Source: Hormoscilla sp. SP12CHS1 (GTDB lineage Bacteria > Cyanobacteriota > Cyanobacteriia > Cyanobacteriales > Desertifilaceae). From it: 37,189 nt of DNA. Made by a program: the position numbers and the translations under genes. Location: positions 1 through 37,189 of the forward strand of contig JACOMV010000001.1 of assembly GCA_014324065.1 (NCBI GenBank), read 5' to 3'. Positions 4,575 to 20,935 of the stretch are shown here, one piece after another (position 1 is the first letter of the stretch; each line of letters starts with the position of its first letter). The notes under the pieces were generated by a model. That model was not told the DNA's origin. It did no database searches and saw only the letters and a list, made by a program, of their open reading frames with translations.

Positions 4575-5273
4575 CTAATTGAAGATATTCTCAGATTGCT
4601 GAGATGGCACTCTTTCCTTGCCGCCAGTTTTGACTTTGGCTTTGGCCTTGGCAGCGCTGCGTTTTAATGCTTGCAGTCGCGCTTCGTATTTAGCCCGCTT
4701 CCGCTTTTTGGGGGTTTGTTCAATTAACACCTTTAAGGCGCTACCCAGACTCTTGTAGGCGTTGGGAAGAGTGTAACCAAAGCGAGTGGCGATCGCGATC
4801 GCCTTCTCATCTGCGGCGATGGAGTCATTTAATACCCGATCGCCATTATTTTTCTGATACAAGCGGTAGCCGGAAATGCCGCAAAGCCCCAGGGCCAAGA
4901 TCAGCAGCAAGCCATCTTGTACCCAGAGTTCGCCCACCGCACCCCCTAACCCGATCGCCAGGGCGGCCATTTCCCAACCATCTTTAGGAATGGTGTCATT
5001 TTGTATTCGTCCCACTTCGTGCCAAAATAGCAGATTCCGCTGGTCGATCGCCAGCTGGTCCCATTTTGCCAGGTCAACTTGGATTTCCACTTCATCATTG
5101 CCAATTTCCTCAGAGCGGATCAATGGTGGACCCACCTCAGTGCTTCCTTCCACCATCACCCAACTCTGCAATTCCGGCGGCAGTAAGCCTTTCAAGCGCC
5201 GCCGTTCATTCATTTCTGCTCTAGCAGAGGAGGTTGCATAGGAGGAGCTCATATCGGACCTCAGAAAATTCAA
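4575..5273 (-). CDS. DUF3318 domain protein
   Basis: MNERRRLKGLLPPELQSWVMVEGSTEVGPPLI...VDLAKWDQLAIDQRNLLFWHEVGRIQNDTIPKDGWEMAAL resembles the cyanobacterial DUF3318 family. Confidence 0.85.
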   Translation of the reverse strand: MNFLRSDMSSSYATSSARAEMNERRRLKGLLPPELQSWVMVEGSTEVGPPLIRSEEIGNDEVEIQVDLAKWDQLAIDQRNLLFWHEVGRIQNDTIPKDGWEMAALAIGLGGAVGELWVQDGLLLILALGLCGISGYRLYQKNNGDRVLNDSIAADEKAIAIATRFGYTLPNAYKSLGSALKVLIEQTPKKRKRAKYEARLQALKRSAAKAKAKVKTGGKERVPSQQSENIFN

Positions 5274-5408
5274 CTACATTAATCAGCTTCTATTTTGGAG
5301 TATATCTCAATAGTGCTGTCGGTGGTAGTCTGGCGCACAAGTTCCCAAAGATCCCGTACCAGGTCACCCGCAGACTGAGATCTTGCACCATTGGAGATTG
5401 GCTTCATG

Positions 5409-5462
5409 GCCCGCCGTGGGTTCAAACCCACGGCTAATAGCTAAAGTCGGTTGAAAACCGAC
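5409..5462. repeat. Two palindromes inside element A: GCCGTGGGTTCAAACCCACGGC and AGTCGGTTGAAAACCGACT
   Basis: Read directly. Confidence 0.85.
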
Positions 5463-5491
5463 TGAAAACCTTATAGATAAAGTGTTTTGCC

Positions 5492-5540
5492 CTGGTTCCC
5501 TGGCTCCGCCTGGGAACGAGTTATGGAGGCTCCGCCTCTA
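5492..5540. repeat. GGTTCCCTGGCTCCGCCTGGGAACG-type palindrome followed by GGAGGCTCCGCCTC
   Basis: Same family at 13025, 14183, 14857, 29643, 29732, 32326. Confidence 0.85.
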
Positions 5541-5667
5541 GTTGCAAATGGTGCAAGATCTCAGTTTTAACCGACTAATAATTCGTAGGGTGGGCATCGC
5601 CCACCACCGCCCACCAAAGTGCGATCGGACGTACATCTCTACCCTTTTGTGCCGATCGCACCCCATC

Positions 5668-5774
5668 GGGTGTGGTCAAAAGTAGTTGATCGGGAAGAAA
5701 CCCGGTTGATTCTCGAAACCTGGTTTCTGGCTCACGCGCCTGCCCCTGAAACCAACTGGTTTTGACCACACCCC
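5668..5774. mobile_element. MITE-like element B, copy 1 (TIR GGGTGTGGTCAAAA)
   Basis: gggtgtggtcaaaagtagttg ... caactggttttgaccacacccc; flanks are contiguous in sister repeats at 7642, 9728 and 10769. Confidence 0.75.
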
Positions 5775-5810
5775 ACCCCATCCGATATACTTTACCATAG
5801 GGGCGATCGC

Positions 5811-6074
5811 CTAAACCACTTCCGCCATCAAAAACCGTCCTTCAACTCTTTCATATTCATCTTCTAGCAACCACATTTTAACCTCTTGATAGCTAGAACT
5901 TGTGAATACAATCTTATAGCCTTCAGTCGGGTAAAAAATGCAAAAATTACTCTCATCATCTCCCAATAACATTAACACATAGGGAGGAACAGAAGTTGGA
6001 TCTACCCAGAGATCCGTAAAGTTCCAGTTATTCGCTAGGTCTGGTGCGGGGGATAACATGATATTTGTCTCCAT
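5811..6074 (-). CDS. Small protein of unknown function; possible immunity protein
   Basis: 87 aa, overlaps the toxin-like ORF upstream; full-length decayed paralog at 10811-11074 and a C-terminal relic at 9770. Confidence 0.6.
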   Translation of the reverse strand: METNIMLSPAPDLANNWNFTDLWVDPTSVPPYVLMLLGDDESNFCIFYPTEGYKIVFTSSSYQEVKMWLLEDEYERVEGRFLMAEVV

Positions 6075-6291
6075 TTATTTTTATTTCACCATAATGTAGA
6101 GTAATTAGACTGCCATCATCACCACTAATTCTGTAACCAATTGGTTTGGCAAAGTAAAGTCCATAGCGTTCATGATTCCGGACAACCCCTGTAAACTTTC
6201 CTTGTTCGATGATAGCTTGAGCGACTCTCATCATTGTATCTCGATCGTTGAAAACATGAGCTGCTTCTTTTCGTCGCAACAACTTTTGCAT
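6028..6291 (-). CDS. Toxin-domain-like fragment (resembles a polymorphic-toxin C-terminal domain, possibly DUF6972-like); likely N-terminally truncated
   Basis: AAHVFNDRDTMMRVAQAIIEQGKFTGVVRNHERYGLYFAKPIGYRISGDDGSLITLHYGEIKINGDKYHVIPRTRP; the frame extends upstream as DSRHQHVAKHLPDTPQ before a stop, with no standard start. Confidence 0.5.
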   Translation of the reverse strand: MQKLLRRKEAAHVFNDRDTMMRVAQAIIEQGKFTGVVRNHERYGLYFAKPIGYRISGDDGSLITLHYGEIKINGDKYHVIPRTRPSE

Positions 6292-6381
6292 CTGTGGAGT
6301 ATCTGGAAGATGCTTGGCGACATGCTGGTGTCTAGAGTCAGTTCCTGGTCAATTCCACTCATTCAAGGTTACAGTTCTCCA

Positions 6382-6442
6382 TAGCCTGCCTGCGCAGGCT
6401 TTGTTTGTGTAGCGGCTTCATTAATGAAGCCGCTATGCCCAC
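6382..6442. repeat. Hairpin repeat H, copy 1 (AGCCTGCCTGCGCAGGCT + TAGCGGCTTCAT-TAATGAAGCCGCTA)
   Basis: Homologous to 10339-10394 and 11408-11467 with different but self-complementary stems. Confidence 0.85.
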
Positions 6443-6720
6443 TTGATGCTATTAAACTCCACTGGTGCCGATCGCCCGCCTCCCCATTTGGGGCGGGTTA
6501 ATACCGACTATACCTTTATCCTATATGACTTTACCCTCCCCGTCAAGAAAAATTTTTGACTCTCTCATCCCCCCTCTTGTCGGAGGTAATGATGGCGGTT
6601 ACCGGCGGGGTTTGCATCTGGGTGCGATCGGGTGTACTTACAGCTTCGTCTCTGGTGCCGATCGCCCTTGGGGCCAGTTGCTGTACTGTAACCAGCTATC
6701 TGGGCGATCGCACCCGTGAG
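6443..6720. repeat. Segmental repeat S, copy 1
   Basis: Diverged copy at 10395-10720 (gat.ctattaaactcc.ctg.tgccgatcgcc...tctcatc..cctcttgtcggaggt...gtgcgatcgggtgtacttaca.cttc). Confidence 0.75.
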
Positions 6721-6726
6721 TTTTCC

Positions 6727-7614
6727 CTACTTTCCTGAATAAGTTATGTATCCCCAGAGCAAACAAGCATATTGTAACCTTGCCAAGGTCTGATTTAAGA
6801 AATTATTTTTCTTGGCGCTAAACATTTTCGGCATTAAATCAATAGCATAAAGATTGCTAATCATCTTGTTACTCTGGCCATAGCGGATAAATCTTTGGCA
6901 AAATCTCAGTATGCCATCCTCAAAGTTATGATAAGTTACTGAATTTAACGCATAACATAACTCACCGATTTCTAACAATCTCCAACCTCAATCTATATCT
7001 TCTCCGGCGGCCATCTTAATCCTCTCGTTGAAGCCTCCTATTTTTGACAGGGCTTTTTTCCAAACCAAGGCATTGGCAGTAATCAAATATTCAGGTCTAA
7101 TTATCCCCTCCTCTGCAATTACTGTAAAGGGCATAATAATTTCTTGACTTTCATAATATCTTGACAAAATATATTCCCCCCAGGCTTTAACATTGCCTGC
7201 ATAGCCGATGGAGCCATTCATAGCCTGAAGATAGCCTTGAATAAATGATTCAGAAGGAATGCAGTCACTATCTTTAAATAAAATCCAATCACCTTTGGCA
7301 TGTTTAATTCCTACATTCCTGGCAGCAGCGGGACCTGTTTTTGAGCATTTCAGCAAGCGGATAGGAAATGGTTTTACTTGGTATTGCTGAGGGATGGTAA
7401 TCTCTGGCTGGGAATTATTGTCAACGATGATAATCTCTTGGGGATAGAGGAGGGAATTGTGTGTCTGAAAAAACTCCTCCAAGAATAAATCTATTCCTTT
7501 CTGATTATTTCTGACTGGGATAACTATCGAAATATCAGATGCTTGGATTTGTCCCGATGCTATTAAATTGGCTTTCTTTTGGGGCTTAAAGCCTAACTTG
7601 GTGATTAAAGTCAT
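6727..7614 (-). pseudogene. Glycosyltransferase family 2, in-frame TGA at 6988-6990
   Basis: ISIVIPVRNNQKGIDLFLEEF...KGDWILFKDSDCIPS...NERIKMAAGEDID-*-GWRLLEIGELCYALNSVTYH; reading continues in the same frame after the stop. Confidence 0.85.
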
Positions 7615-7641
7615 TAGTCCTCCGTAAATCTATATTCACCC

Positions 7642-7718
7642 GATCGCACCCAACCAGATATACTTTCCCATCGGGGCGAACGCTGCGCGAAAAATCGGGC
7701 ACGCCACTTCCGCCATAA
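7642..7718. repeat. Tail repeat R (copy 2), interrupted by acgctgcgcgaaaaatcgggc
   Basis: gatcgcacccaaccagatatactttcccatcggggcga..cgccacttccgcc; sister copies near 5774-5830, 9728-9815, 10769-10860. Confidence 0.8.
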
Positions 7719-7721
7719 CAA

Positions 7722-7810
7722 GGGGTGTGGTCATGCATTTGTTGCATTAGGCGATCCCCCCCAGCTGGGGGGGATCGGAATCTTTACCCAACGGGGTTTT
7801 GACCACACCC
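7722..7810. mobile_element. MITE-like element B, copy 2
   Basis: ggggtgtggtcatgcat ... acggggttttgaccacaccc; inner palindrome GCGATCCCCCCAGCTGGGGGGGATCG. Confidence 0.7.
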
Positions 7811-7913
7811 GTTTTCTGGAGCCCGTGTGATATGCGGAAAATCGCTCTCTTCCTTATGCTGTCTGCATTTTGCAGTACCACATCCATTTTATAAACGCTA
7901 TAGCAAGGGATAT

Positions 7914-8291
7914 TTAACCGCTTTCGAGGGCATAAGGAATCAGAACAAAATCATAGCGATCGGGCGGAAAGTCACGAAAATTGCGAGTAACAAGGGTGAG
8001 TTGATAAATCTGGCAAAAGGCGGCTTGAATAGCATCGGGGATCCTCCACCCCTCTTGACGACGCAATAATGCGGCTAAGTCCGCTACTGCCACCGTCATT
8101 TCCAGGGTTGTAAACTGGTCTAGAAATTGGGCTGCAATCTCAGCATCAGGTGGTTCAAACCCTACTATAACTTCTGCTCTAGTAATTACGGAAATAGCAC
8201 TTTACCCTTGGGACTGGAGCAGATACTTTGTAGCCGCAGGAATATTGTTAAAGTGGTCGATTAGGATAACCGAATCCAGCAATAATCTCAC
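7914..8291 (-). pseudogene. PIN-domain toxin (VapC-like), in-frame TAA at 8202-8204
   Basis: GTG start overlaps the antitoxin stop: MRLLLDSVILIDHFNNIPAATKYLLQSQG-*-SAISVITRAEVIVGFEPPDAEI...TVAVADLAALLRRQEGWRIPDAIQAAFCQIYQLTLVTRNFRDFP. Confidence 0.85.
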
Positions 8292-8524
8292 GCCCACTCC
8301 CCCCGAATTATTTGCTGGTATTCCAACCCATCGGACCCCTTCCAGATGCCCCTGGTTTGCTCTAAGAGAAGCTCAAAAGAGGGATATTCTGCTTTGTCTT
8401 CTTCTTGGCGCATTCGCTTAACGGCTTGACCGATTAAGGCGGCGATCGTCGTTTTATTTTCTTTGGCTTTCATTTCTAGCCAGCGCAGATCTGCGGGCTC
8501 TAGGATAATCTCGTTAGGGCTCAT
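8288..8524 (-). CDS. VapB-like antitoxin
   Basis: 78 aa, MSPNEIILEPADLRWLEMKAKENKTTIAALIGQAVKRMRQEE; directly precedes the PIN toxin with overlapping stop/start. Confidence 0.75.
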   Translation of the reverse strand: MSPNEIILEPADLRWLEMKAKENKTTIAALIGQAVKRMRQEEDKAEYPSFELLLEQTRGIWKGSDGLEYQQIIRGEWA

Positions 8525-8841
8525 CTGCTTGCACTAATGTTAGTATAGTTCAATGATATAGCAATCTCTCAGAAATCGCCAACTGGCTCGCTGTACCATA
8601 TGCTCAAACATCAAGTCTCTTTTTCTATTTTTCCATTTTCCCTCTTGACCTCCAGACCAATATCAGCCTCGCGATCGCGAACTAGCATTTCGTAATTTGC
8701 AACGTAAGGAGCGGAAAATAGGTGCTAGACTGGCGATTTATATTTAGAATAATGACAGCGACCCCTAAACCCCCTCTTGTTTCTGAGGAGGCGGCGAGGG
8801 GACTGAAACACACCTTATCACAGCAAAAGGATTTCCTCCAA

Positions 8842-9252
8842 ATGAAGACTGTCATAAAACGTCGAACGGCGATGGTCATACTCGCGATCGTGCTCGCGTT
8901 GTTCACAACCTTTACGCTTGTTTTGGCTCAAGGCTTGCCCGGCGTCCAGGTTCTCTATGCCCTGAAGCCCAGCGGTCAACTGTCGTACTACAGCTATAGC
9001 GGCCTGCCGAATCCCAGCAACTTCCGCAACGACGGTCGGGAGAGGGCAATCTCGAACGGCTGGAACATGTACAGCAAGGTTTTCTCGGGAGGTCCGGGAG
9101 TTCTCTTTGCCCTGAAGCCCAGCGGCCAACTGTCGTACTACAGCTATAGCGGTTTGCCGGATCCCAATAACTTCCGCAACGGCGGTCAGGAGAGGGCAAT
9201 CTCGAACGGCTGGAACATCTACCAGAATATCTTCGGTGGGTGGTCTCTATAA
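8842..9252 (+). CDS. Secreted two-blade tachylectin-like beta-propeller protein
   Basis: Signal-peptide-like N-terminus (MKTVIKRRTAMVILAIVLALFTTFTLVLA) then two near-identical units LYALKPSGQLSYYSYSGLPNPSNFRNDGRERAISNGWNMYSKVFSGG / LFALKPSGQLSYYSYSGLPDPNNFRNGGQERAISNGWNIYQNIFGGW. Confidence 0.75.
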   Translation: MKTVIKRRTAMVILAIVLALFTTFTLVLAQGLPGVQVLYALKPSGQLSYYSYSGLPNPSNFRNDGRERAISNGWNMYSKVFSGGPGVLFALKPSGQLSYYSYSGLPDPNNFRNGGQERAISNGWNIYQNIFGGWSL

Positions 9253-9269
9253 GCGCTACTTCCGGAGTT

Positions 9270-9303
9270 GTAGGTTGGGTTGAGGCCAGCAAACCCCAAC
9301 CTG
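9270..9303. repeat. GTAGGTTGGGTTGAGG..CCCCAACCTG palindrome, same family as 4523
   Basis: Read directly. Confidence 0.8.
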
Positions 9304-9657
9304 TGAGATTTAGCAGTATATCTCATTATAGCGAATTTCCCCCACTCACTTGTAGGGTACATCTCATTTTTGCGGCGGGGCTATTCACCGGTAACCCATA
9401 AACCCGGACTGGTAGCCCTCTAACCCGGTATGGTATTAGAGTCCCCAGAAACCCGGTTTCTTATACCATTTTTTTAACTACAAAAGTCGTAGGGTGGGCA
9501 CTGTCAAGGACGATCTTGTCAGTTATCTGCTAATTATACCTTGCGGCGATCGCCTGTCCAGTCTTAAGTTTGCACCCGCTCGCACCCAACCCGATAATAC
9601 CAAATGTCAAAAAGGTTGCTACACTGTGGGCGCGAAAGTTCTTTCACGCAAGCACTT

Positions 9658-9690
9658 CACCCGCAGGGGGTTTTAACCGACTAATAATTC
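9658..9690. repeat. Apparent empty target site of MITE-like element A
   Basis: tcacccgcag-gggg-ttttaaccgactaataattc; the same two flanks bracket element A at 5365-5374 and 5565-5584. Confidence 0.65.
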
Positions 9691-9727
9691 CTTTGGCGAA
9701 CTGGCGTACATTTTCGCCTCTGGTGCT

Positions 9728-9815
9728 GATCGCACCCAACCCGATATATTTTCCCATAGGGGCGATCGGCTAAACCACTTCCGCCATCAGCAACCGGACT
9801 TCAACTCTCTCCATA
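9728..9815 (-). repeat. Tail repeat R (copy 3) with C-terminal relic of the 5811-type gene
   Basis: gatcgcacccaacccgatatattttcccataggggcgatcggctaaaccacttccgccatcag; minus strand KEYGERVEVRLLMAEVV*. Confidence 0.7.
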
Positions 9816-9835
9816 CTCCTTATTACCATAACAGA

Positions 9836-10247
9836 TTAGTTAGGGTACTTCACAGTAGGAAGATGCTTACCAATATACCCGATAATCATCTTTCCTGGTT
9901 TTTCATCATATGGGAAAAAATGAATCCGCCAATATTCCTCCACGCTCATGTGCCATGAAAAAGTCCGATCTTCACCATCAGGACACCGAAATATTCTCAT
10001 TGGTCCGTAAATCTTATGGTTAAGCGTTTGATCACTCTCCTGTCTTGCATCGCCGGGTCGGGGTGGTAATAATATTAATCTCCTCTGGATCGTACAAGAA
10101 AGCATCTTGATCGTATGTGTAATCACTGTCTTCCTCCTCTCTATCGGAGGCTTCGTTATAACCTTTTGGTTGGTGCTTAGACTTTTCTGTCACAGTAAAT
10201 ACTCTCCTTGGTGTTAATGTCCATTCAGTCCCCACAATGCTTGGCAT
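9836..10247 (-). CDS. Uncharacterised small gene(s); two overlapping ORFs (10032-10247 and 9836-10126), possibly one frameshifted gene
   Basis: ORF ending ..TTPTRRCKTGE* overlaps ..ESDQTLNHKIYGPMRIFRCPDGEDRTFSWHMSVEEYWRIHFFPYDEKPGKMIIGYIGKHLPTVKYPN. Confidence 0.45.
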
Positions 10248-10338
10248 TACTATATCGGCATGTAACTTTCTGGATGTCCTGATTATATCCTACTTTCTCC
10301 CCAATATCAAATCCGAGAGAACACTTATAACACATCTT

Positions 10339-10394
10339 AGCCTGGCCAGGCTTTGTTTCTGTAGCGGCAGAATTCATTCTGCCGCAATGCCCAC
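10339..10394. repeat. Hairpin repeat H, copy 2 (AGCCTGGCCAGGCT + GCGGCAGAATTCATTCTGCCGC)
   Basis: Read directly. Confidence 0.85.
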
Positions 10395-10720
10395 CTGATC
10401 CTACTAAACTCCGCTGCTGCCGATCGCCTTCCCCATTTCGGGCTAGCTAATGCCGACCCTACCTCGATCATATATTACTTTCCCCCAAAGTGTCAATATT
10501 TTTTCCTCTCTCATTTCTCCTCTTGTCGGAGGTCATCTTGCCGTTACCGTTGGTATCTGCGTGCGATCGGGTGTACTTACACCTTCCCTACTGGTGCCGA
10601 TCGCCTGCTTCAGGCATTTTCGGCGGGATGCTAACCATACTTTATCTTATATGAATTTCCCCGAAACGTCAAGAAAAATTTTTCCTCTCTCATCCCCCTT
10701 TTGTCGAAGGCCATGATTGA
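10395..10720. repeat. Segmental repeat S, copy 2
   Basis: See copy 1 at 6443; contains an additional internal partial duplication (10620-10720). Confidence 0.7.
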
Positions 10721-10810
10721 GGTTACCGGTGGGTTGGGTGCGATCGGACATCTTTACCCTCTGGTCCCGATCGCGCCCAACTCGATAGACTTTACCATAT
10801 GGGCTATCGG

Positions 10811-11074
10811 CTAAACCACTTCCGCCATCAACAACCGTCCTTCAACTCTTTCATATTCATCTTCTAGCAACCATAGTTTCGCCTCTTGATAGCTATAACT
10901 TGCGAAAACAATCTTCTAGCCTTCATTCGGGTCAAAAATACAAAAATTACTCTTATCATCTCCCAATAACATTAACACATAGGGAGGAACAGAAGTTGGA
11001 TATACCCAGACCTCAGTAAATTTCCAGTTATTCCCTAAATCTGGTGCGGTTGATAACATGATCTTTGTCTTCAC
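10811..11074 (-). pseudogene. Decayed paralog of the 5811-6074 gene, in-frame TAG at 10916-10918
   Basis: VKTKIMLSTAPDLGNNWKFTEVWVYPTSVPPYVLMLLGDDKSNFCIFDPNEG-*-KIVFASYSYQEAKLWLLEDEYERVEGRLLMAEVV*; same length as the intact copy. Confidence 0.85.
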
Positions 11075-11083
11075 AAATCATTT

Positions 11084-11371
11084 TTAATTTCGCTCTAGCA
11101 TATGCATGGCGTAGGCCACCTCGCGCTCTAATTCTTCTCGCGTCTGGTCTGGAAATGGTGAAATATCGTAGACATCCATCAAATCTGAACGTTGCCAGCG
11201 ATCTATTCCTAACAGCTTTGCTGCTCGTCCTGCACTGATATCATGCCGTAGTAACAACTCCATCACATATGCTTCTTTAGCTTTCCGCTCAGCCGCTAAC
11301 CTCTTTGCCTCTGGAATTTCCCTAACGGCTATTGTGAATTTTACTTGAATTCCCGCTTATTGTATATTCAT
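11084..11371 (-). pseudogene. UPF0175 family protein with in-frame TAA at codon 5 (11357-11359)
   Basis: MNIQ-*-AGIQVKFTIAVREIPEAKRLAAERKAKEAYVMELLLRHDISAGRAAKLLGIDRWQRSDLMDVYDISPFPDQTREELEREV. Confidence 0.75.
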
Positions 11372-11407
11372 AACTTTCCTTGATTAATTAAACCCTCGTA
11401 TATTAAT

Positions 11408-11467
11408 AGCCTGCGCAGGCAGGCTTGGTTTATGTAGCGGCAGAATAAATCCTGCCGCTACACCCAC
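11408..11467. repeat. Hairpin repeat H, copy 3 (TAGCGGCAGAATAAATCCTGCCGCTA)
   Basis: Read directly. Confidence 0.85.
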
Positions 11468-11477
11468 AGCAAGGCTA

Positions 11478-12947
<1,470 letters not shown>

Positions 12948-19669: not shown

Positions 19670-20935
19670 TAGGCGAGGCAGCCAAAGCCGCAAGGTGTGT
19701 CGATCGATACTGTTAGGCGTTGGGCTGATGCTGGGAAAATCCGTCCGAGCGCGTTCGCCGAGTGGTCAGGTGGCGTTTTGAGACGAACTATCAAAAAAGA
19801 TAGGTCAAGCAGAATGAGGACATTGACATATACTAAAGGTTTACCTACTCCAGCAGAGGAACTAAACGAACTCGGATTTACGACCTTTGAGATGTTCCTA
19901 AATGCTTACGCTCCTATATACCGTCTTGCTGTGTATGAGACGGTCAATCATTTATTGTCTGGAGAAACCTTTAATAAATCTCAGTGGAACAGTCACTTGC
20001 AGCAGACTTATAGAATTAACAAGCGTCATGCTAACGGTGTCATCGCAGATGCTGTAGGTCAAGTATCGTCAGCAAAAGAATGTAGACAAAACCATATAAA
20101 GCAACTGCAAGGTAAACTGAAATCTACTCAAGAATGGATTCGCAAGGCCCAGAGTCAATTAAATTTAGCCAGAAAGTTCTACACAAAAAAAGACTGGCAG
20201 CACTCTAAGACTGGCTGTATATTCCCGATAGCCAGTTCGTTGCAGTACCGCGATACTAATTGGCAGCACTTGCGTTTTCAAATTCACCAAAAGAAGCGGA
20301 AAGCCTGTTTGCTAGAGCGGAAAATAAGTTATCTAAAATTAAAGCAGTACGAAGTAAAAGTACCGCACAGTCAGGGTTTCGTGGTTGGCTGCAAGGCTGA
20401 AAAATTGGGTAATCAGGTTTGTCAATGGGATGGAAAGTACATAAAGTTTAGAGTCCCTGCATGTTTAGAAGATCGGTTCGGTGAGTATGTAACAACTCGA
20501 TTGGGATCCTATGAGCGGAAGATAAACAGACTGCCCAATACAGGAGCAAAAAGCTGGCATTTTTACCGCAAAAATGGTAAGTGGAATGCCGCAGTGCAAT
20601 TCACTCCAACCCCAGTCGAGCGAGTGTCGCGGCATTCGGCTTACGGCTGCATCGGAATTGACATGAATCCCGGATCGATCGGATGTATGTCGATAAGGAT
20701 GGAAATTTAAAGTCTAAAGGTCAGATACCGCTGCAAATGGGATTACCTCACGGTCAGCAAGATGCTCAGATTGTCGATGCTTGCTTGCAGTTGGTAGCTT
20801 TGGCTAATACTCGGAGATGCCCGATAGTTTGTGAGAATCTCGACTTTTCTAGGAAAAAGGAACAGTTGAAAGAATGTGGTAGCAAATACGCTCGGATGAT
20901 ATCAGGTTGGGCTTACAGTCGCTTTTTCCAGCTAC
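19670..20935 (+). pseudogene. IS607-like remnant: TnpA N-terminal HTH scraps fused to a frameshifted, C-terminally truncated TnpB-like nuclease
   Basis: GVSIDTVRRWADAGKIRP (TnpA HTH) then TnpB-like with RuvC-I GCIGIDMNPGSIG, frameshift near 20680 to MYVDKDGNL, RuvC-II IVCENLDFSRKK; stops before RuvC-III. Confidence 0.75.

What the first reader, a model, noticed from the sequence alone, without database searches (positions are those of the whole stretch)
5375..11467. Duplicated flanks around different toxin/antitoxin-like cargoes: a cassette-like accessory region
Three stretches share the layout R tail - 5811-type gene - cargo - hairpin H (plus segment S in two). Unit 1: R about 5774, intact 87-aa gene 5811-6074, toxin-domain-like cargo 6028-6291, H 6382, S 6443-6720. 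Unit 2: R 9728, C-terminal relic 9770-9815, unrelated cargo 9836-10247, H 10339, S 10395-10720. Unit 3: R 10769, full-length pseudogene 10811-11074, UPF0175 cargo 11084-11371, H 11408. A fourth R (7642) lies 3' of a VapBC pair. Flanks are homologous while cargo differs, and all cargo genes are on the minus strand. This resembles modular toxin/immunity arrays, but the exchange mechanism is unknown.
Basis: partly seen in the sequence, partly recalled or inferred. Interest (0 to 1): 0.75.

Follow-up and report, generated by a model that had tools for sequence, protein, structure and literature searches.

The report
Displaced toxin–immunity units beside chlN
In a sponge-symbiont cyanobacterium, a small toxin-and-antidote gene unit next to a chlorophyll gene was copied several times, and in the copies the toxin was replaced by other defence genes while the antidote stayed behind, giving a local defence-gene hotspot that has since begun to decay.

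Summary
In detail: three units with homologous flanks (R, the 5811-type gene 'I', H, S) and different cargo lie between chlN and a DUF3318 gene in a Hormoscilla (sponge symbiont) genome. Unit 1 is DUF6972 plus I. The predicted DUF6972 fold matches the YxiD tRNase toxin. In 386 genomes, 38 of 38 intact DUF6972 genes have intact I directly downstream, while 52 of 90 intact I genes lack intact DUF6972: the asymmetry expected of toxin and immunity gene. The unit-2 'unrelated cargo' is what a 2.9-kb deletion left of a Menshen anti-phage operon, complete in both congeners. Unit 3 is a broken UPF0175/DUF3368 VapBC plus an orphan I; R4 ends a PIN-type VapBC. R and S occur nowhere else in the genome, S carries a promoter-like motif reading into the cargo, and H is an ordinary dispersed repeat. 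So these are local duplicates of a promoter–toxin–immunity unit, not mobile cassettes. chlN–DUF6972–I synteny reaches Nostocales, where other TA and defence genes fill the same interval. Best model: the toxin is displaced, immunity is kept, and shared flanks allow exchange (Menshen alleles 42–75% identical in protein between flanks of mostly 90–98% DNA identity). Toxicity, neutralisation and promoter use are inferred, not shown.

The parts
4575..5273 (-). DUF3318 gene, far-side neighbour of the interval, kept in Nostocales too
5774..5810 (-). R1, 3' border of unit 1
5811..6074 (-). I1, intact 87-aa immunity/antitoxin candidate, no Pfam family
6028..6354 (-). DUF6972 toxin candidate of unit 1; 1-nt deletion near the start compared with G002, so the open frame from an ATG is 6028-6291
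6381..6442 (.). H1, palindromic dispersed repeat
6443..6725 (-). S1 with promoter-like site 6546-6518 reading into unit 1
6727..7614 (-). broken glycosyltransferase; an intact relative lies between chlN and DUF6972 in Dolichospermum
7635..7720 (-). R4 with about 18 nt of the I 3' end
7914..8297 (-). VapC (PIN) of unit 4, in-frame stop in the window, open in G002
8288..8524 (-). VapB-like partner of the PIN gene
9721..9769 (-). R2
9770..9815 (-). C-terminal relic of I directly after the NsnC stop
9836..10057 (-). 3' end of NsnC (Menshen)
10057..10065 (.). deletion junction; about 2.9 kb of NsnABC missing compared with G002
10065..10306 (-). 5' end of NsnA (Menshen)
10333..10394 (.). H2
10396..10747 (-). 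S2 and S2', tandem copies with promoter-like sites 10496-10467 and 10672-10644
10758..10810 (-). R3
10811..11074 (-). I3, orphan immunity copy with one TAG; open in G001 and G002
11084..11371 (-). UPF0175 antitoxin gene with an in-frame stop near its start; its DUF3368 toxin is present in G002 and absent here
11406..11467 (.). H3, between chlN and unit 3
11478..12881 (-). chlN, anchor gene

Best explanation
The resident of this spot is a two-gene toxin–immunity unit. First comes DUF6972, about 111 aa, a stand-alone RNase-type toxin with a YxiD-like (BECR/Ntox50) fold; overlapping its end is I, about 85 aa, its immunity protein or antitoxin. S supplies the promoter and R marks the 3' end. In a Hormoscilla ancestor the unit was copied in tandem beside chlN. 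In the copies the toxin was displaced by other TA or defence cargo (UPF0175/DUF3368 VapBC up to the I start codon; the Menshen operon up to the last codons of I), while I or its 3' end and R stayed. The shared flanks then allowed homologous exchange (Menshen alleles) and deletions, and in this genome most of the array is decaying. Shown: homology, synteny, co-occurrence, fold prediction, the deletion, allele divergence. Inferred: RNase activity, neutralisation by I, promoter use, order of events.
For: Intact DUF6972 always has intact I downstream (38/38), intact I often lacks intact DUF6972 (52/90), and no incomplete I stands beside an intact DUF6972; discordant pairs 20:0. Confident model (pLDDT 94) whose top PDB match is the YxiD toxin domain, E 2e-4; invariant K17-H18 aligns with YxiD K446-H447, whose alanine mutants lose activity. 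I1 and I3 are homologous up to the I start codon, where the cargo changes. Menshen complete in congeners and ending at an I relic that is nearly identical in all three genomes. Menshen identity drops between conserved flanks. The chlN–DUF6972–I order is kept in other families. Parallel cases: caspase gene in place of DUF6972 before I (L121), AAA gene against a DUF6972 stump (L118), methylase followed by an I relic (L106, L118), TIR genes before I (L155), BrnT before I (L170).
Against: No experiment. Most orphan I genes inspected lie beside ordinary genes rather than defence cargo. The I model has no fold relative and only moderate confidence. H is not specific to the array. The window genome is a 573-contig draft, so some broken frames may be sequence errors. 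Related genomes make the co-occurrence counts non-independent. Direct YxiD sequence similarity is weak (E 0.75).
Confidence: 0.62

Rival explanations
1. Passive accumulation: chlN–DUF3318 is simply a tolerant insertion spot. The I/R/S/H flanks were duplicated by chance, TA and defence genes landed there independently, and the I copies are leftovers with no role in how cargo arrived.
For: Other genera carry TA genes at the chlN 3' end without I (L088, L090, L092). Most modules of the window are broken. H is a dispersed repeat. Most orphan I genes have ordinary neighbours.
Against: Cargo ends coincide with I or R in three of four units. Similar I-bounded cargo occurs in unrelated cyanobacteria. 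The Menshen allele boundary coincides with the I relic.
Confidence: 0.25
2. Mobile gene cassettes with R and H as recognition borders, moved by a site-specific recombinase.
For: Repeated order of R, I, H and S around different cargo.
Against: R and S exist only at this locus in the genome; H is widespread without such cargo; no integrase among the ORFs of at least 150 aa read in the window (by eye); synteny at chlN is old and fixed.
Confidence: 0.05
3. I is a general partner protein: a broad antitoxin or chaperone that serves whichever toxin lies upstream, so cargo is chosen to suit I rather than displacing its partner.
For: A short N-terminus, BrnA-like by eye, fused in frame to I downstream of a BrnT toxin in L170; I domains at the C-terminus of 208-254-aa proteins; I3 looks conserved in G001 and G002 although DUF6972 is gone there (few differences).
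Against: Unit 2 kept only a fragment of I; the other toxins have their own antitoxins; no intact DUF6972 lacks I, which points to a specific pair.
Confidence: 0.08

Closest known systems
Orphan immunity gene arrays of Vibrio cholerae T6SS clusters (PMC5361080)
   Same: Toxin replaced by incoming modules, old immunity gene retained, homologous recombination proposed
   Different: There successive effector–immunity pairs of a secretion system; here a stand-alone toxin–immunity pair displaced by TA and anti-phage operons, beside a chlorophyll gene
YxiD–YxxD toxin–immunity pair of Bacillus subtilis (PMC12700104; PDB 9v8i)
   Same: Predicted fold of the toxin domain, the K-H motif, toxin with a separate small partner protein
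   Different: YxiD is the tip of an LXG secreted protein; DUF6972 stands alone; no fold match of I to YxxD was found
CdiA-CT/CdiI of Yersinia kristensenii (PDB 5e3e; PMC9086364)
   Same: Second-best fold match of DUF6972; RNase toxin with immunity protein
   Different: TM only about 0.5; delivered by a large CdiA protein
Menshen anti-phage system (NsnABC; PADLOC; PMC10952713)
   Same: Cargo of unit 2 in congeners, three genes with DUF262/GmrSD_N and AAA proteins
   Different: Deleted to its two ends in the window
VapBC-type pairs (PIN; UPF0175/DUF3368, PADLOC PDC-S70)
   Same: Cargo of units 3 and 4
   Different: Broken in the window; unit 3 is followed by an orphan I
Defence islands and hotspots
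   Same: Variable TA and defence genes between conserved neighbours (chlN and DUF3318)
   Different: Modules here border a copy or relic of the same immunity gene

Membership tests
Two-gene toxin–immunity / type II TA module (DUF6972–I) | Two small adjacent co-directional genes, conserved as a pair | tested here: met
   38 of 38 intact DUF6972 genes adjoin intact I, mostly overlapping
Two-gene toxin–immunity / type II TA module (DUF6972–I) | Toxin not kept without its partner while the partner may be kept alone | tested here: met
   20:0 discordant pairs, 32 further I genes with no DUF6972
Two-gene toxin–immunity / type II TA module (DUF6972–I) | Toxic activity neutralised by the partner | not testable with these tools
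   needs expression tests
BECR/Ntox50 toxin (YxiD-like) | BECR-type fold | tested here: met
   Model pLDDT 94; Foldseek best hit 9v8i_B E 2e-4, TM 0.66/0.68
BECR/Ntox50 toxin (YxiD-like) | Active-site residues | tested here: inconclusive
   K17-H18 invariant and aligned with K446-H447; H102 invariant but its match to H521 or H528 was not established
BECR/Ntox50 toxin (YxiD-like) | Significant match to Pfam Ntox50 | tested here: inconclusive
   Only 3 of 36 members at E <= 1, best 0.063
Polymorphic toxin of a delivery system (CDI, LXG, T6SS) | Toxin domain at the C-terminus of a large delivered protein | tested here: not met
   Full-length frames are 106-161 aa
Orphan immunity array | Immunity genes retained without their toxin | tested here: met
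   I3 in G001 and G002; 52 of 90 intact I genes in the phylum sample
Menshen | NsnA, NsnB and NsnC in order | tested here: not met
   Met in G001 and G002; in the window only the ends of NsnA and NsnC remain
Mobile gene-cassette / integron-like array | Borders recurring with other cargo elsewhere, and a recombinase | tested here: not met
   R and S only here; no integrase seen by eye
Defence island / hotspot | Several defence/TA modules clustered between conserved neighbours and variable between genomes | tested here: met

The most novel reading that the evidence does not exclude
The immunity gene I acts as an evolutionary landing pad: across cyanobacteria, new TA and anti-phage operons are captured between an existing promoter and I, turning a toxin–immunity pair into an expression site for successive defence systems, with I kept as immunity against relatives that still carry DUF6972 or built into a new antitoxin (as in the BrnT-linked fusion).
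Probability: 0.15. Interest if true: 0.75.

Novelty: new variant of a known kind. Interest (0 to 1): 0.52.

Why it matters
It gives a testable function to two uncharacterised families: DUF6972 (no paper found in the library searched) as an RNase-type toxin, and I (no Pfam match) as its immunity protein. It names a conserved cyanobacterial interval, chlN to DUF3318, where defence genes turn over, and shows the 'toxin replaced, immunity kept' pattern, known from secreted effectors, with TA and anti-phage cargo.

Tried and rejected
R+H as a mobile cassette signature: rejected. Known RNA families in the region: none at gathering threshold. DUF6972 on viral contigs: no relative found. Fold relative for I: none at E <= 0.001; sequence relatives of I in the PDB: none significant. 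One Pfam scan failed on a mis-framed reference and was repeated with another protein. VapB/VapC of unit 4 had no PADLOC match. A published chlN defence hotspot: none seen in one search. Considered and dropped: that unit 2 holds a new small gene pair (it is a deletion product), and that R is a terminator (none predicted there).
Full report
Where it is. The window is the whole of contig C1 of a 5.0-Mb, 573-contig draft genome. Hormoscilla are cyanobacterial symbionts of Lamellodysidea sponges (PMC6520454, PMC7313196). The stretch lies between chlN and a DUF3318 gene, both on the minus strand; read in that direction each unit is S–H–cargo–I–R.

The observation. All the repeats are there and far above chance (best self-match 395 bits against at most 29.2 in shuffles). 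R and S are found only at this locus in the genome. H is one of about 27 related copies scattered through it, with none for the reversed control pattern, so H by itself is not a border of anything special. S of unit 2 is two tandem copies. The S copies of the window, and the one in G001, carry the same promoter-like pair, TTGAC[GA] followed by a TATAAGAT-like box, pointing at the cargo. That is a consensus match, not proof of a promoter.

The resident unit. The unit-1 cargo is DUF6972 (PF22319, E 1.4e-39), followed by the 5811 gene, called I here, which has no Pfam family. In 386 genomes of the phylum all 38 intact DUF6972 genes are followed directly by an intact I on the same strand, mostly overlapping. 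Of 90 intact I genes, 38 have an intact DUF6972, 20 a broken one and 32 none. No incomplete I stands beside an intact DUF6972. A toxin that cannot be kept without its antidote predicts exactly this. The genomes are related, so the counts are not independent, but the direction is uniform. A smaller search of 99 relatives agrees: 41 of 46 DUF6972 hits adjoin I and the other five are partial matches.

What DUF6972 looks like. The AF2 model is confident (pLDDT 94). Its only PDB match at E <= 0.001 is the toxin domain of YxiD (9v8i_B, TM 0.66/0.68), followed by CdiA-CT of Y. kristensenii (E 0.012, probability 1.00). A profile search by sequence also puts YxiD first, weakly (E 0.75), and lines up the invariant K17-H18 of DUF6972 with K446-H447 of YxiD. 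YxiD is a tRNase with a BECR fold and an Ntox50 assignment, and alanine at K446, H447, H521, K524 or H528 abolishes its activity (PMC12700104). H102 of DUF6972 is invariant too, but its match to a YxiD histidine was not established here. Full-length DUF6972 frames are 106 to 161 aa, so it is a stand-alone protein and not the tip of a delivered one. The I model is moderate (pLDDT 80) and has no fold match at E <= 0.001.

What the other cargoes are. Unit 2: both congeners hold a complete three-gene operon that scores as NsnA, NsnB and NsnC in PADLOC (E 4.5e-81 to 1e-128 with the best models); that Nsn means the Menshen system is own knowledge, and Menshen is described with a DUF262 gene (PMC10952713), which NsnA matches (GmrSD_N). 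The window keeps the first part of NsnA and the last part of NsnC, joined at about 10057-10065, with about 2.9 kb missing compared with G002. Unit 3: UPF0175, followed in G002 by a DUF3368 PIN toxin, a pair that PADLOC lists as candidate PDC-S70. The window and G001 lack the toxin, and in the window UPF0175 has an in-frame stop near its start (read directly). I3 follows; it is open in G001 and G002 but has one TAG in the window. Unit 4: a VapB-like gene and a PIN-domain VapC, the latter open in G002 and stopped in the window, ending at R4 with about 18 nt of I.

How old and how exchanged. I1 and I3 differ more from each other (90-94% DNA identity) than their orthologues do between genomes (95-97%), so the duplication is older than the split of these three genomes and the copies have not been homogenised since. 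Between G001 and G002, chlN and the other flanks are mostly 90-98% identical in 150-nt blocks, lower in some intergenic DNA. Over most of the Menshen operon the blocks fall to 44-75%, with an 82-99% patch inside NsnB; in protein NsnA, NsnB and NsnC are 52, 75 and 42% identical. Identity returns abruptly at the NsnC stop, where the I relic and R2 begin, and the I relic is nearly identical in all three genomes. One insertion followed by allelic replacement between the shared flanks explains this most simply.

The same place in other genera. chlN is followed by DUF6972–I in Oscillatoriales/Microcoleaceae MAGs (L111, L113, L114, L116) and in Dolichospermum, Anabaena and Trichormus (L107, L108, L110); Anabaena, Aphanizomenon and other relatives keep I with a truncated or lost DUF6972 (L109, L118, L121). 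Several of these keep DUF3318 at the far end. In Dolichospermum L107 a glycosyltransferase stands between chlN and DUF6972, as a broken one does in the window, which suggests that unit 1 is the ancestral copy. The interval fills with different genes: YafQ- and YoeB-type toxins, PIN toxins, a DNA methylase with an Mrr-like domain, HNH, XisH, DUF4160, a caspase-like protease, an AAA protein. In L121 the caspase gene stands where DUF6972 should be, directly before I; in L118 the AAA gene abuts a DUF6972 stump; in L106 and L118 the methylase is followed by a C-terminal I relic, as NsnC is here. Elsewhere two TIR genes precede I in L155, and in L170 BrnT is followed by a short N-terminus, BrnA-like by eye, fused in frame to I. 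Members of the same family but other genera have other TA pairs at the chlN 3' end and no I there (L088, L090, L092). Most orphan I genes inspected lie beside ordinary genes, so capture of defence cargo is a tendency and not a rule.

Reading. The closest described process is the growth of orphan immunity arrays in Vibrio cholerae, where incoming modules replace the effector and the old immunity gene is kept, together with frequent homologous recombination (PMC5361080). Here the incoming cargo is TA and anti-phage operons and the resident is a stand-alone toxin–immunity pair. The mobile-cassette reading lacks borders that recur elsewhere and a recombinase. The passive reading (tolerant spot, chance duplications, decay) remains the main rival.

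Limits. Everything is computed. Toxicity and neutralisation are inferred. The window genome is a fragmented draft, and single-base breaks may be sequence errors. G001 is estimated 7% contaminated.

Noticed in passing
5374-5565: A 192-bp element with perfect 19-bp inverted ends (ACTGAGATCTTGCACCATT), MITE-like, between DUF3318 and unit 1.
   Followed up: no
5668-5773 and 7724-7811: Small elements with GGGTGTGGTCA / TGACCACACCC inverted ends, one beside R1 and one directly beside the I remnant of R4; the second may have cut I there (for the first; the second read by eye).
   Followed up: partly
L050:10709-11473, L069:6960-7586, L071:5989-6615: The I domain also forms the C-terminal part of 208-254-aa proteins, one of them in the window's own genome (contig C209).
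   Followed up: no
L170:1264-1990: BrnT toxin followed by a short N-terminus, BrnA-like by eye, fused in frame to I.
   Followed up: partly
L045:17081-17524: In G002 a tandem array of about 79-nt units, each holding a 35-nt match to H, lies on the other side of chlN.
   Followed up: no
8722-9252: Plus-strand tachylectin-like ORF with an internal 150-nt repeat, between units 1 and 2; shorter in G002.
   Followed up: no
19697-20710: ORF that starts like an IS607-type resolvase and continues like a TnpB protein; read by eye, possibly a fused or decayed transposon.
   Followed up: no
L059:6632-11081: In another family two nearly identical I copies, each followed by the same 150-aa and 59-aa ORFs, flank a HepT/nucleotidyltransferase pair.
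   Followed up: partly
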